In this document: in pieces, positions 3,307-27,631 of the stretch
Numbering within the stretch: position 1 is the stretch's first letter
Layout: the number at the start of each line of letters is the position of its first letter
Origin: a virus
Virus record (IMG/VR): IMGVR_UViG_3300028666_000012
Coordinates: 1-40,817 of that record
Direction: 5' to 3' (one strand)
Length of the DNA stretch: 40,817 nt
Made by a program: the position numbers and the translations under genes
Notes under the pieces: generated by a model
Databases searched by the model: none
What the model saw: the letters and a program-made list of their open reading frames with translations, nothing else
Told to the model about the DNA's origin: nothing

Positions 3307-3544
3307 TTAATCCCTCATTTCTACAATGAGAATCCTACGGGTTCAGGCTCGTAGGACTTTCAATGTAAATCCGCTTTACATTGAAATCAAATAATTGCTA
3401 TAAAGAAATTTCGCAAGTCCTGCGTTATGGACAAATCAGCGTAAGAAAGCATCGCACCTTTCATCAAGATATGATCGAAAATACGCGTAGTTAGGTTCGC
3501 ATACCGATCATCATATCATATTAATCTCATTTAATGAGGTTATC
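3307..3544 (+). other. Hairpin-rich leader of the major capsid gene
   Basis: This 238-nt stretch has no convincing gene. It holds two strong hairpins: TCCTACG/CGTAGGA (3333-3339 with 3350-3356) and a perfect 12-bp stem (3358-3369 with 3375-3386) with a TCCGC loop. Neither is followed by a run of T, so they do not look like intrinsic terminators. A small CTCAT/ATGAG hairpin (3527-3540 region) sits next to the capsid ribosome site GAGG. The region may be a 5' untranslated leader controlling capsid mRNA stability or processing. Confidence 0.55.
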
Positions 3545-5487
3545 ATGCAGATTACCAATACAGGGAATTTAGGCCCTATGATTTTGCAGAGCTTAGCTCC
3601 GGCGATGTTATATGTTCCTACGCCCACAATGAATTACATTACTATCTGTGACAAAGTTTCTATGCCTGCTAATGGCGGAACTACTTGCAGATTTATGCGC
3701 CCACGCGCACTACAACCTCCAACGATTCAACTTGGTAACTCGGGAATTGACCCCCCAGCTCAAGTTCCTCAGAGGGATATCATAGATGCACAAATGGCAT
3801 TCTTCGGTAATTATGCCAGTGCCGAAGATGACTTGTCTCAATATAGACTGGCTGCATAATCAACGAGCAAGTTATCCTGCAAGACCAAGAAGGAGTCTTG
3901 GCATGGGTATCTGAAAGACTCGCTGTTGCAATGAGACAAGCCGAGGATTAAGATTAAGTCCTCGATAAACCTTTTCTGATTGACTTGGAAGTCTAAGTTG
4001 AATCAGATTTGTGTCATAATTAATATGATACAAATATGAGTCAATATGACGACAGGGGGCAAGATTATGAATGATCAAATTATGAAACATTTTGAAATGA
4101 AACTTTTATGGGAAAATAAAAGGATCATGAATGAAAAAGGTGATATAATTGATGTTTATATTCAGCCTGAGAGAACAAGCGAAAAGGATCAATCATCTGG
4201 AAAAACCGGAAAGTTGATATGCGATGTTCCGAACACTCCAACGAAAGGGAGTGAATCTAGCAGAAATGACTAGGTCACGTCGAAAGACGGGGTAACAGGT
4301 TGTTAATTTTACGTGATTACATCGTCTCCGCAGCGTCAGAAATCAACGCAGGGGGTGGTTCTAATGCTGATAATCCCACAAATTTGGGTGTATCAGATTT
4401 TAGTTTAGTTGCTACGACTTTGGATACTAACAATGCCTACAAATTTATGTCAGGTATTGAAGGAATGGATAGATTCGGTAAAGTGTGTGCCGAATTAAAA
4501 CTTTGGGTAATTGACTTGGAGTGCCTTGCTGCATGATAAAAGAAAAATTCGCTCTAATTGGTGGAGATATACATAAACTAATTAGAATAAAGAAATATGA
4601 CCAGTGGGATAAATATTCTTGGAGAGTTCATTATAAAGGAAATTTATATTTTGTTCCTGTAAAAGATGAATGCAAACATGATTTTGAACCTAAAACAACT
4701 GGTTATATTCGAAGAAGAGTTTTTAATAATAAAATGTAGAAGGTTAACAAGGGGCAAGATTATGAAAGAAGAATTGATAGATTATGTAATGGGAAAAGCT
4801 GATCAATATTATTCGGATGATTTCCCTATATATTCTATAGAAGTATGGATAAGAGAATTCTTTGATCAATATCAGCCTGAGAGATCAAACCCTGAAGAAG
4901 CTAGAAAACCATTAAAAGAAGATATAATAAAACTTTTAGATAGAAAGTTTATAAATTCTCCAAAAACTAGCTTATGCGATGATCCGAACTCGGAATATAA
5001 ATAAAATCCGAGAAGTAGGCAGAAATGACCTACTCGCCTCTATGAGGTGGTAACAGAATTGACAGGCCCAGTAAGAAGTGCATACTTCATGTTGTCTAAT
5101 ACAGAATTGCAGACAGATTTCGACGCCTTGACTGGTAGCGGATTCTTGTCTCAATGGAACTATCCTACAAATGCGAGCGCATTGACTTCAGAATACGGTT
5201 CTGTATTTAACATCCGTATTTTGACAAGCTCTGAGGCTCCTGTAGCTCGTGGTGCTAGTGCTAATGGTAACGACGTGTATTACAATACAGTTGTTGGAAA
5301 ACAAGCCGTTACGCATATTAACCAAGATGGTTATAGCATGAATTTGATTTATAGAGACCCATACTACAGTGGTATGTTGGCCCAAAATGCGACTCTTGCA
5401 GTTAAGTTTGCGCAAGCGCAAGCAATCACTCAAGATACTGCTATCCGAAACCTTTTAAGCACTCGCTTAGCGAACTTAAACCCATAG
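3545..5487 (+). CDS. Major capsid protein, N4-gp56-like, split gene (join of four pieces)
   Basis: Coding pieces are 3545-3814, 3853-3948, 4303-4479 and 5062-5487, giving 322 residues when joined. The joined product reads smoothly across junctions (NY/CIINEQV, AED/LILRDYIV, DRFG/TGPVRS). It fits the N4-gp56 family pattern as I recall it, including the conserved R-D-(Y/V)-(I/L) helix after the second junction and Gly-rich loops. Junctions 2 and 3 are removed as group I-like introns; junction 1 is a 38-nt hairpin insert whose removal is unexplained. Read without processing, the gene stops at 3859, after only 104 residues. The start has GAGG about 6 nt upstream. The gene lies between scaffold and decoration genes. 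Exact placement of junction 1 is uncertain by a few bases, but all placements remove 38 nt. Confidence 0.85.
3815..3852 (+). other. 38-nt hairpin insert interrupting the major capsid frame
   Basis: The insert begins with GCCAGT and ends with ACTGGC, a perfect 6-bp inverted repeat, and the flanks ATTAT and ATAAT can extend the stem imperfectly. Its length is not a multiple of three, and reading through it reaches TAA at 3857-3859. Removing 38 nt joins TAT to TGC and restores the capsid frame. It is far too short for a group I or II intron, lacks a guide sequence for its own 5' edge, and has no slippery heptamer. Possible readings are a translational bypass signal, a nuclease/ligase-processed insert, an intron relic, or a lesion in this isolate. 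Confidence 0.6.
3949..4302 (+). ncRNA. Group I-like self-splicing intron in capsid gene (354 nt)
   Basis: The upstream exon ends CGAGGAT. Inside the intron at 3958-3964 lies GTCCTCG, pairing perfectly with it except for the expected U-G wobble at the splice site (P1). The bases before that guide (ATTAA) pair with the start of the downstream exon (TTAAT), giving P10. The intron ends in G at 4302. Splicing restores the capsid frame. It shares boxes with the intron at 4480-5061: GGGGCAAGATTATGAA, CAGCCTGAGAGA, ATGCGATG-T-TCCGAAC, a hairpin with loop CAGAAATGA, and a final GGTAACAG. I could not assign P3-P7 confidently, so the subgroup is open. Confidence 0.82.
4067..4273 (+). CDS. Small intron-encoded ORF (68 aa), function unknown
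   Basis: The ATG follows the conserved intron box GGGGCAAG, which doubles as a plausible ribosome site. The N-terminal half (MNDQIMKHFEMKLLWENKR) looks like a protein. The C-terminal half, from IQPERTSEKDQ onward, is read through the intron's conserved RNA core, so it is probably constrained by RNA structure. It has none of the HNH, GIY-YIG, LAGLIDADG or His-Cys motifs of homing endonucleases. It may be a decayed endonuclease remnant, a small splicing accessory protein, or no gene at all. Confidence 0.4.
   Translation: MNDQIMKHFEMKLLWENKRIMNEKGDIIDVYIQPERTSEKDQSSGKTGKLICDVPNTPTKGSESSRND
4533..4739 (+). CDS. Intron-encoded hypothetical protein (68 aa)
   Basis: This ORF lies entirely within the second capsid intron, before its conserved core, in the part that makes this intron longer than the first. 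The protein (MIKEKFALIGGDIHKLIR start) is basic, with Trp/Tyr-rich strands and one Cys-x-His pair (ECKHDF), ending with Arg-rich GYIRRRVF. The composition could fit an RNA- or DNA-binding protein. No homing endonuclease signature is visible and no strong ribosome site precedes the ATG. I do not recognise it. Confidence 0.45.
   Translation: MIKEKFALIGGDIHKLIRIKKYDQWDKYSWRVHYKGNLYFVPVKDECKHDFEPKTTGYIRRRVFNNKM
4762..5004 (+). CDS. Intron-encoded hypothetical protein (80 aa)
   Basis: The ATG follows GGGGCAAG, exactly as in the ORF of the first intron. The protein is acidic and helical (MKEELIDYVMGKADQYYSDD). Near residue 43 it has YQPERSN, equivalent to IQPERTS in the first intron's ORF because both are read through the same conserved RNA box. 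The remainder, ENDING in SEYK, runs into the 3' RNA core. No nuclease motif is visible. The shared start context in two diverged introns is the best argument that these ORFs are translated. Confidence 0.42.
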   Translation: MKEELIDYVMGKADQYYSDDFPIYSIEVWIREFFDQYQPERSNPEEARKPLKEDIIKLLDRKFINSPKTSLCDDPNSEYK

Positions 5488-26325: not shown

Positions 26326-26621
26326 TTATCGACTCCATATTTTTCCAACCTTTCCCATAATTTAGGAAACTTAATCTTAAATCCTAGTAATGCACCAGAG
26401 TGGTTCTCTGCAATCCTAGAGATTAAGTAAACTGTACGCACAATTCGTACGTTTATTTCATTCTCTTCTCCTACAGCATCCTTAACCCAATTGTCTTCGT
26501 CGTCAACGTCATATAACTCATAGAAATCAGTTAAATCTAATATCAATCTTCGGAATTTGTTGAAGTCGAAAAACTTAAATGCTTCTTCAATTTCATGTTC
26601 TAGGAATTCGAATTTAGCCAT
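26322..26621 (-). CDS. Acidic helical hypothetical protein (99 aa)
   Basis: The protein is helical and acidic (FLEHEIEEAFKFFDFNKF, then DLTDFYELYDVDDEDNW) and ends KLWERLEKYGVDK. It lies between the RNA ligase and the metallophosphoesterase with overlaps at both ends, so it may belong to the same functional set. Its second half (VRIVRTVYLISRIAENHSGAL) resembles the helical small proteins common beside phage recombination genes. Not recognised. Confidence 0.6.
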   Translation of the reverse strand: MAKFEFLEHEIEEAFKFFDFNKFRRLILDLTDFYELYDVDDEDNWVKDAVGEENEINVRIVRTVYLISRIAENHSGALLGFKIKFPKLWERLEKYGVDK

Positions 26622-27631
26622 TATTTCTCATAGTTAAGGTTAATCACTTTGAAGCTAATTGGCTTGTGTCCTAAAACGTTATCTTGAGATCTAACAATAA
26701 CTCCTTCCCTTTGTTTTCCATTTGTGTATGTTCCCTCTCCAAGCTTATCAATATTTTCAGAAGAAAACCTGGATTTATGTTCTAGAATAGCAACCATTGG
26801 AAATCGCAATTGGGTGCAAAAATAGATGAATTCATGGAAATTAAGATATCTTTTTTCATTTATATTATATGCAGAAAAAGCGAGACCAATAACGTCTGTA
26901 AATCCCATTGGGTTACCCTGAATCTTAGGACCACATGTCTCCCATTGAATAGCAAATCCATCAGGCAAACGCTCTTCCAATTTATGATTAATAGCCACTT
27001 TCCAATATCCATTCTTCTCATCTCTTTCGAGTTCCCAATTTCTAGAACATAATCCAAATTTACCTTTATATTTATATGCAGTAGTCGAAGAACCATCAGC
27101 CTTTTCAGTTATGTAATATGGTTTACCATCGAGTAACTGGATGTATTCTTGACCAATTGAATTTTGATAATTCGGCTCATCAGTCTTAGGAATGAATCCA
27201 GGGAACTCTCCTTTTGCTTTTCCTTGTAAATTTGCTGGTACTGGCTTATGGTATTTCTTAACTTCTAAATCAGATGTAACGTCTAAACCAATATCCCATA
27301 ACTGTTCTGTAGAGTCATTATAGGTATGTGAATCGCATTTAGTGATTAAAACTTCACTTGGAGCTCCTTTAAAACGGCACATCCTAACTCGCCATTTTGT
27401 CTTCTCCATATAAGGAAGATAAGAATGCTTGTCTTTGTCTAATAGAGAATCAGGTAAGAATACAGTGCAGAAGCTTCCTACAACGAAATCACTTTTACGA
27501 ACTACTCCACGCCACTTTCCACCTTTACCGCATATTACAGTTGCAGAAACGATTAATTCAGCTCCTTGAATGGGTTCTAAAGAAATTATCTTGCCAATAT
27601 ATACTAATCCTTCATCTATTGAATCAGACAT
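26621..27631 (-). CDS. ATP-dependent RNA ligase with N-terminal OB-like domain (336 aa)
   Basis: Nucleotidyltransferase motifs are in order: motif I EKADGSS with Lys177 as the AMP acceptor, motif Ia/near FGLCSRN (192-198), motif III region IQWETCGP (228-235), motif IV REGVIVR (308-314) and motif V SFKVINLNY (326-334, Lys328). The first 120 residues form a separate beta-rich domain (GLVYIGKIISLEPIQGAE), and the two-domain layout with an N-terminal OB-like module is that of the Rnl5/DraRnl type. It seals nicked RNA. Next to end-healing enzymes it likely repairs host-cut tRNA or other RNA. Length fits this family. Coupled start with the upstream small gene. Confidence 0.85.
   Translation of the reverse strand: MSDSIDEGLVYIGKIISLEPIQGAELIVSATVICGKGGKWRGVVRKSDFVVGSFCTVFLPDSLLDKDKHSYLPYMEKTKWRVRMCRFKGAPSEVLITKCDSHTYNDSTEQLWDIGLDVTSDLEVKKYHKPVPANLQGKAKGEFPGFIPKTDEPNYQNSIGQEYIQLLDGKPYYITEKADGSSTTAYKYKGKFGLCSRNWELERDEKNGYWKVAINHKLEERLPDGFAIQWETCGPKIQGNPMGFTDVIGLAFSAYNINEKRYLNFHEFIYFCTQLRFPMVAILEHKSRFSSENIDKLGEGTYTNGKQREGVIVRSQDNVLGHKPISFKVINLNYEK

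What the first reader, a model, noticed from the sequence alone, without database searches (positions are those of the whole stretch)
3815..3852. A 38-nt hairpin with exact 6-bp inverted ends interrupts the capsid frame
Between TAT and TGC codons lies an insert starting GCCAGT and ending ACTGGC. It shifts the frame and leads to TAA at 3857. It is too small for any known self-splicing intron, has no slippery heptamer, and no matched take-off/landing codons at its edges as in T4 gene 60. The capsid protein is essential, so some mechanism must remove or bypass it, or the sequenced genome is defective. Options: a new type of translational bypass, cleavage and re-ligation at the RNA level, or a mini-element.
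Basis: partly seen in the sequence, partly recalled or inferred. Interest (0 to 1): 0.88.

Follow-up and report, generated by a model that had tools for sequence, protein, structure and literature searches.

The report
Tiny coreless introns in phage capsid gene

Summary
The insert is real, but its true edges are 3809-3846, not 3815-3852: all 80 uninterrupted relatives read AFFG^TG[C/V]. No ribozyme core is present. I found 39 contigs with such 'minis' (29-79 nt) at this site and more at three other capsid sites. Bodies vary widely, but P1/P10 covary with the exons (96% paired), 34/34 distinct site-88 minis end in G, and 33/34 read in frame to ...AA* or ...VA* (mostly LAA/LVA, ssrA-like); where exon 2 makes that stop, 20/20 use TGC-NTA codons versus 1/78 in intron-free relatives. 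Wherever enough sequence is held, a full group I intron (core shown by covariation, LAGLIDADG endonuclease in many) follows 9-55 codons later. Best reading: guide-only group I introns excised by the neighbouring core, carrying a stop plus degron that keeps ribosomes off the ribozyme and destroys unspliced products. Splicing itself is inferred, not observed.

The parts
3545..3808 (+). capsid exon 1 (residues 1-88, ...MAFFG)
   Evidence: PHROG 1357 major head protein for the spliced protein
3809..3846 (+). 38-nt mini-intron: AATTAT-GCCAGT-GCCGAAGA-TGACTTGTCTCAATATAG, ends in G
   Evidence: edges set by 80 uninterrupted relatives and by P1/P10
3801..3808 (+). 5' strand of P1 (UCUUCGGU); U3808 at the 5' splice site forms U.G
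3815..3828 (+). internal guide sequence: GCCAGU (P10 strand, 3815-3820) + GCCGAAGA (P1 strand, 3821-3828)
3847..3852 (+).
3809..3859 (+). frame-0 read-through of unspliced RNA: NYASAEDDLSQYRLAA* (LAA codons 3848-3856, TAA 3857-3859), ssrA-like C-terminus, made jointly by insert and exon 2 (TGC ATA)
3847..3948 (+). capsid exon 2 (residues 89-122, TGCIINEQV...MRQAED)
3949..4302 (+). full-size group I intron I1 (354 nt), P1 GAGGAU/GUCCUC, P3, P4, P6, P7; candidate helper core; contains 75-aa ORF 4046-4273
4303..4479 (+). capsid exon 3 (residues 123-181)
4480..5061 (+). full-size group I intron I2 (582 nt), P1 UUCGGU/GCCGAA; frame-0 read-through ends ...DLECLAA*; contains ORFs of 72 and 112 aa
5062..5487 (+). 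capsid exon 4 (residues 182-322, stop)

Best explanation
The insert is a guide-only ('mini') group I-type intron. Its 14-nt internal guide holds the end of exon 1 (P1, U.G at the cut) and the start of exon 2 (P10) side by side, and its last base acts as the omega-G. It has no P3-P9 core, so the two transesterifications are done by the core of the full group I intron that follows in the same transcript (in the window I1 at 3949-4302, or I2), which takes the mini's P1/P10 helix as a second substrate. Until that happens, ribosomes reading exon 1 enter the mini and stop after ...LAA, giving a truncated capsid with an ssrA/ClpXP-like degron. The mini thus works as a gate: it keeps ribosomes out of the downstream ribozyme until the core has folded and acts, and it marks products of unspliced RNA for destruction. 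SHOWN from sequence: edges, P1/P10 pairing with covariation, terminal G, absence of a core, co-occurrence with a downstream full intron, the ...AA* rule and its exon recoding. INFERRED: splicing, catalysis by the neighbouring core, degradation of the product, the gating role.
For: (1) Edges predicted from P1/P10/omega-G before homologues were seen were confirmed by all 80 uninterrupted relatives. (2) 34 distinct site-88 minis: 34/34 end in G, 34/34 have G opposite the splice-site U, the P1 column opposite the Phe wobble base is Watson-Crick 34/34 (two types), the P10 column opposite the Thr wobble base 32/34 (four types); permutation 0/100000. 31 gap-free rows: 96.2% of cells paired versus 23-47% when slid. 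(3) Minis with the same logic at three more capsid sites: residue 91 (L158-L160), 105 (L091, L102/L104, L107, L112), 109 (L105, L109). (4) Dependence: every mini whose downstream exon is held is followed by a full intron 9-55 codons on; 18/18 capsids fetched for an intron at residue 97 or 101 carry the mini; full introns without minis exist, so the dependence looks one-way. (5) The full introns are group I: P3/P4/P6/P7 pseudoknot, 98.6% of cells paired, one P7 pair with four types; core model hits 34/37 mini/full records versus 9/50 uninterrupted relatives. (6) Frame-0 tails of site-88 minis are LAA, LVA, QAA, QVA, IAA, EAA in 33 of 34; where exon 2 supplies the stop, 20/20 use TGC-NTA versus 1/78 (Fisher 6e-20). 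(7) Full introns directly after a mini lack ...AA* (1/29 have it) while others carry it (16/22), p=1.5e-7: the mini takes over that job. (8) Chemistry precedent: an engineered group I 'spliceozyme' removes 64-100-nt introns in trans, in vitro and in E. coli (PMC4094466).
Against: No RNA or protein data exist here. No contact between a mini and a specific core was found. Weak cases: L098 has a mismatch at the first P10 pair and tail LII*, L085 has only scattered P10 pairs, L101 has a first-pair mismatch; L102/L104 at site 105 read TK*; L158 and L112 keep ...AA* in the full intron too. Co-occurrence could partly reflect co-transfer by homing: the downstream introns carry LAGLIDADG endonucleases. 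The controls were chosen for uninterrupted capsids, so that contrast is biased.
Confidence: 0.72

Rival explanations
1. Programmed translational bypass (as in T4 gene 60 or mitochondrial byps): the ribosome hops over the 38 nt with the RNA left intact.
For: Size is in the range of known bypassed gaps; both flanks contain a Gly codon (GGT before, GGN in ACN GGN after), so a Gly-to-Gly hop losing two residues is conceivable.
Against: No codon just before ACN matches the take-off GGT: the inserts end TAG, AAG, GCG, TTG and so on. Bypass does not need a terminal G (34/34), a U.G at the junction (34/34) or pairing to both flanks, nor a nearby group I intron. Frame 0 is open through the insert in 20 of 34 minis, whereas the T4 gap starts with a stop (own knowledge).
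Confidence: 0.06
2. Dead remnants of group I introns: internal deletions that left P1 and the last G; the sequenced phages are defective or minority variants.
For: A 712-nt full intron sits at the very same site in L082; the mini keeps only the ends.
Against: Compensatory changes in P1 and P10, minis at four sites, exon recoding and spread over the capsid tree no more clustered than chance (28 changes, shuffled mean 29.7) demand ongoing selection in viable phages. Descent from full introns by deletion is still a likely origin.
Confidence: 0.05
3. Spliced by protein enzymes: endonuclease plus RNA ligase, or host tRNA-type splicing. The window phage encodes an RNA ligase (PF09414, 26621-27628, minus strand).
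For: RNA ligase domain present in the window.
Against: The domain passes the cut-off in only 3 of 22 mini/full records and 2 of 23 others, so it cannot be a general requirement; U.G and terminal G are group I marks. A host ligase such as RtcB was not tested.
Confidence: 0.07
4. Same excised mini-intron, but its role is to occupy (and so immunise) a homing site used by another intron's endonuclease, as residue 88 is itself a full-intron site in L082; the ...AA* tail is secondary.
For: L082 has a full intron at site 88; LAGLIDADG genes are common in the downstream introns.
Against: Does not explain the ...AA* tails, the exon recoding, or the lack of ...AA* in the full intron when a mini precedes it.
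Confidence: 0.1

Closest known systems
Group I self-splicing introns of phages (e.g. T4 td, Twort introns)
   Same: P1 with U.G at the 5' splice site, P10 with the 3' exon, terminal G; in-frame stop near the 5' end; LAGLIDADG genes in the partner introns
   Different: the mini has no P3-P9 core at all and is 29-79 nt; it appears only with a full intron just downstream; P10 is unusually long (4-9 bp in most)
Engineered spliceozymes / trans-splicing group I ribozymes (PMC4094466)
   Same: a group I core removes a short intron that has none
   Different: designed, works in trans with guides on the ribozyme; here the guide lies in the mini and the core in the same transcript, naturally
Exon skipping between tandem group I introns (Twort, cited in PMC3073962; engineered in PMC10136302)
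   Same: elements of one group I intron act on sites of another in the same transcript
   Different: there each intron has its own core and exons are lost; here a coreless intron is proposed to be removed and the exon kept
T4 gene 60 bypass and Magnusiomyces mitochondrial byps
   Same: short non-coding insert in an essential gene
   Different: no matched take-off/landing codons; pairing is with both exons and the insert ends in G
ssrA/tmRNA tag (LAA; variants such as LVA), ClpXP degrons
   Same: C-terminus of the unspliced product ends LAA or LVA in most cases
   Different: encoded in the intron or across the splice site, not added by tmRNA; degradation untested

Membership tests
Group I intron (autonomous, self-splicing) | U.G pair at the 5' splice site inside P1 | tested here: met
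   34/34 distinct minis
Group I intron (autonomous, self-splicing) | terminal (omega) G | tested here: met
   34/34
Group I intron (autonomous, self-splicing) | P10 pairing of guide with 3' exon | tested here: met
   93.5% of cells paired with covariation; a few weak members (L085, L098)
Group I intron (autonomous, self-splicing) | catalytic core P3-P4-P6-P7-P8 inside the intron | tested here: not met
   38 nt, nothing but P1/P10 strands, a 6-nt leader and an 18-nt tail; Rfam and own core model do not match it. So it is filed only as a group I-type splice substrate, not as an autonomous group I intron
Group I intron (the neighbours I1, I2 and relatives) | P3/P7 pseudoknotted core | tested here: met
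   missed by Rfam
Group I intron (the neighbours I1, I2 and relatives) | self-splicing in vitro | not testable with these tools
   needs an experiment
Programmed translational bypass | matched take-off and landing codons at the gap edges | tested here: not met
   bases before ACN are TAG/AAG/GCG/TTG..., take-off is GGT
Programmed translational bypass | gap retained in mRNA | not testable with these tools
   needs cDNA
ssrA-like degron | C-terminal LAA (or LVA and similar) directly before the stop | tested here: met
   LAA 22, LVA 5, QAA 3 and singles among 34 site-88 minis plus the second L105 mini
ssrA-like degron | degradation by ClpXP or similar of the host | not testable with these tools
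   host unknown; GTDB hits are in MAG contigs of six unrelated groups

The most novel reading that the evidence does not exclude
A natural one-enzyme, two-intron system: non-autonomous, guide-only group I introns, removed by the ribozyme core of a neighbouring intron, which serve as removable stop-plus-degron gates that couple translation of an essential capsid gene to activity of the ribozyme downstream.
Probability: 0.6. Interest if true: 0.95.

Novelty: new variant of a known kind. Interest (0 to 1): 0.9.

Why it matters
Group I introns are understood as self-contained ribozymes. A widespread class that keeps only the substrate half and borrows a neighbour's core would be a natural case of an intron separated from its catalyst (the step usually invoked for the origin of spliceosomal introns, known so far for group II descendants), here in viruses of bacteria. 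The ...AA* rule adds a second surprise: introns that encode a quality-control tag for the product of their own unspliced RNA. Both are directly testable with short transcripts in vitro, and standard intron finders miss both the minis and their partner introns.

Tried and rejected
Rfam at gathering and relaxed thresholds found no group I intron in the window or in L068-L082; group I nature was shown by own alignment instead. Exact copies of the 38-mer and of its tail: none in other capsids (the two tail hits, L118/L119, are unrelated DNA). Annotated phage records: no DNA or protein relatives. Group II reading rejected on sight (no GUGYG start, no domain V-like motif; not tested with a model). 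Slippery frameshift: the -1 frame is closed by TGA and TAG inside the insert, so a single slip would have to occur after 3846, and relatives have no extra residues. The first bracket string for P10 was off by one column; corrected. A blind scan for P1+P10+G gives 226 hits per 3.09 Mb versus 117 per 3.01 Mb of shuffled DNA, so signature hits count only inside an interrupted capsid frame. The capsid 5' leader was considered as a helper ribozyme but occurs also in intron-free relatives. An idea that mini tails derive from J8/7 of full introns (GAUUAUGCGA-like strings) was not pursued.

Full report
What was checked. The capsid ORF starts at 3545, runs into TAA at 3857-3859, and continues in another frame as CIINEQVILQDQEG...MRQAED. 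The inverted hexamers GCCAGT (3815-3820) and ACTGGC (3847-3852) are there. The gene is interrupted twice more downstream: joining 3545-3808, 3847-3948, 4303-4479 and 5062-5487 gives an uninterrupted 322-residue protein that matches PHROG 1357, major head protein.

Edges. Reading the sequence, GCCGAAGA in the insert complements the end of exon 1 (TCTTCGGT) with a U.G pair at its last base, and GCCAGT just before it complements ACTGGC. That is the P1 plus P10 layout of a group I intron, and it predicts an insert of 3809-3846, ending in G (note). The relatives then settled it: 80 viral contigs carry the capsid with FFG directly followed by TG[C/V].

Not alone. Scanning IMG/VR for capsids interrupted directly after MAFFGGT gave 36 contigs, 35 of them with a short insert and one (L082) with a 712-nt full intron; with the window and two more found later (L150, L152) there are 38 contigs, 34 distinct, with a short insert of 29-79 nt at this exact site, plus one GTDB MAG contig (L161). 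The bodies of the inserts are very different from each other. What is kept is a guide that pairs with both exons, and a final G. P1 is 6-9 bp; P10 is 4-9 bp in most. In 34 distinct cases the base opposite the splice-site U is always G; the pair opposite the wobble base of the Phe codon is C-G 28 times and T-A 6 times, never broken; the pair opposite the wobble base of the Thr codon is T-A, A-T, G-C or C-G in 32 of 34. On 31 distinct gap-free rows 96.2% of cells pair, against 23-47% when the partner is slid by 1-3 columns, and no shuffle of 500 reaches the covariation score. This is pairing kept by selection. The mini label is scattered over a tree of the far half of the capsid as much as shuffled labels are (28 changes, shuffled mean 29.7), so descent within one clade does not explain the pattern.

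Other sites. The same kind of element occurs at residue 91 (L158, L159, L160; 32-38 nt), 105 (L107, L091, L102/L104, L112; 33-48 nt) and 109 (L105, L109; 43 and 36 nt), again with P1, P10, U.G and a final G.

The partner. Downstream of each mini, in the same gene and 9 to 55 codons away, is a full-size intron of about 200-1150 nt, wherever the contig continues far enough to tell (not assessable in L113, whose near-twin L107 shows it). In the reverse direction, scans for capsids interrupted at residue 97 or 101 returned 18 true capsids, all with the mini. But full introns at other positions occur without minis (L068, L071, L074, L076 at 29-31; the window's I2 at 181), so minis seem to need full introns rather than the reverse. 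In L094 and L088/L089 a single core is found in the record held, so one core would have to serve both introns.

The full introns are group I introns, although no Rfam family matches them. On seven of them P3, P4, P6 and P7 are paired in 98.6% of cells, 12 of 20 pairs change on both sides, and one P7 pair occurs as C-G, G-C, A-U and U-A. P3 and P7 interlock, which defines the group I core. A covariance model of this core hits 34 of 37 records of the mini/full set (the three without are fragments of 6.9, 15.6 and 24.7 kb) and 9 of 50 uninterrupted relatives (these controls were chosen for uninterrupted capsids, so the contrast is biased). Many partners carry LAGLIDADG endonuclease genes, some on the opposite strand, so the unit is probably mobile.

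The tail. Read without splicing, frame 0 runs from exon 1 into the mini and stops after ...AA or ...VA in 33 of 34 site-88 minis: LAA, LVA, QAA, QVA, IAA, EAA. This is reached in two ways: with the stop inside the insert (14), or with a stop made from exon 2 in the shifted frame (20). In the second class exon 2 always has TGC-ATA or TGC-GTA, giving GCA-TAA; among 78 intron-free relatives such a codon pair occurs once (Fisher 6e-20). The exon itself is recoded so that the unspliced product ends in this tag. LAA and LVA are C-termini of ssrA-type tags recognised by ClpXP (own knowledge). Minis at sites 91, 105 and 109 mostly do the same (AAA*, MAA*, LIAA*, VAA*, RLAA*; exception TK* in L102/L104). 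Full introns that are not directly preceded by a mini also mostly end in ...AA* (16 of 22 beyond residue 45; e.g. the window's I2, DLECLAA*), but those directly after a mini do not (1 of 29; Fisher 1.5e-7). So roughly one stop-plus-tag is kept per unit, and where a mini is present it carries it.

How it most likely works. Reviews state that most group I introns in phage genes have an in-frame stop just inside the intron to keep ribosomes out of the ribozyme (PMC3073962; PMC3984707). The mini moves that stop, with a degron, well upstream of the ribozyme. Its guide aligns both exons; the neighbouring core supplies catalysis; its last G takes the place of omega-G. When the core is active the gate is removed, and ribosomes go on along a mature message. 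That a group I core can remove a coreless intron of 64-100 nt has been shown with engineered spliceozymes in vitro and in E. coli (PMC4094466). What is not shown: that the mini is excised, that the neighbour does it, and that the tag is read by a protease.

Rivals. Bypass lacks matched codons and does not explain the terminal G or the guide. Decay does not explain covariation and recoding. An RNA ligase is encoded in the window (26621-27628, minus strand), but the domain passes the cut-off in only 3 of 22 mini/full records. Protection of a homing site could be an additional benefit.

Novelty. In the paper library, searches for degron-bearing or mini group I introns of phages returned nothing matching; most subscription papers are not held, so this is weak evidence of absence. 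I file it as a new variant of a known kind (group I splicing), not as a member of the autonomous group I introns, because the core was tested for and is absent. If the helper mechanism is proven it would deserve a category of its own.

Noticed in passing
window 3390-3540 and the same place in relatives (e.g. L002-L008, L083, L103): The capsid 5' leader holds a conserved, apparently structured element (GCGTTATGGAC ... GATATGATCGAGAAC-GACGTA ... GGCTCGTC-ACCGATCATCATATC), present with or without introns; no Rfam family matches it. Possibly a new regulatory leader.
   Followed up: partly
window 3949-4302 and 4480-5061; L068, L071, L074, L076, L082: Compact group I introns (down to about 210 nt) of this phage family are missed by Rfam even at relaxed thresholds.
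   Followed up: yes
L082, reverse strand, about 790-1501: The 712-nt intron at residue 88 contains two tandem near-identical core halves (repeat of TTGACTTGGAACTCCTCGCTGCAT...), perhaps an intermediate of duplication or of intron shrinkage.
   Followed up: no
window 4046-4273, 4521-4739, 4666-5004: Small intron-encoded ORFs (75, 72 and 112 aa) without Pfam match.
   Followed up: partly
L084, L086, L087, L096, L102, L109, L111, L115 partner introns: LAGLIDADG-like endonuclease genes lie antisense to the capsid gene inside the partner introns, sense in L095, L103, L108, L110, L157.
   Followed up: partly
L106, L114, L102: Capsid genes with four to six introns each within about 960 coding bases, an unusual intron density for a phage gene.
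   Followed up: no
window 26621-27628 (minus strand): RNA ligase domain protein (PF09414) present in few relatives.
   Followed up: partly
L156-L161 (GTDB MAG contigs): Phage contigs of this family were binned into MAGs of Nitrospiraceae, Bacteroidales, Chlamydiia, Patescibacteria, Pseudomonadota and Peregrinibacteria; likely mis-binning, host unknown.
   Followed up: no
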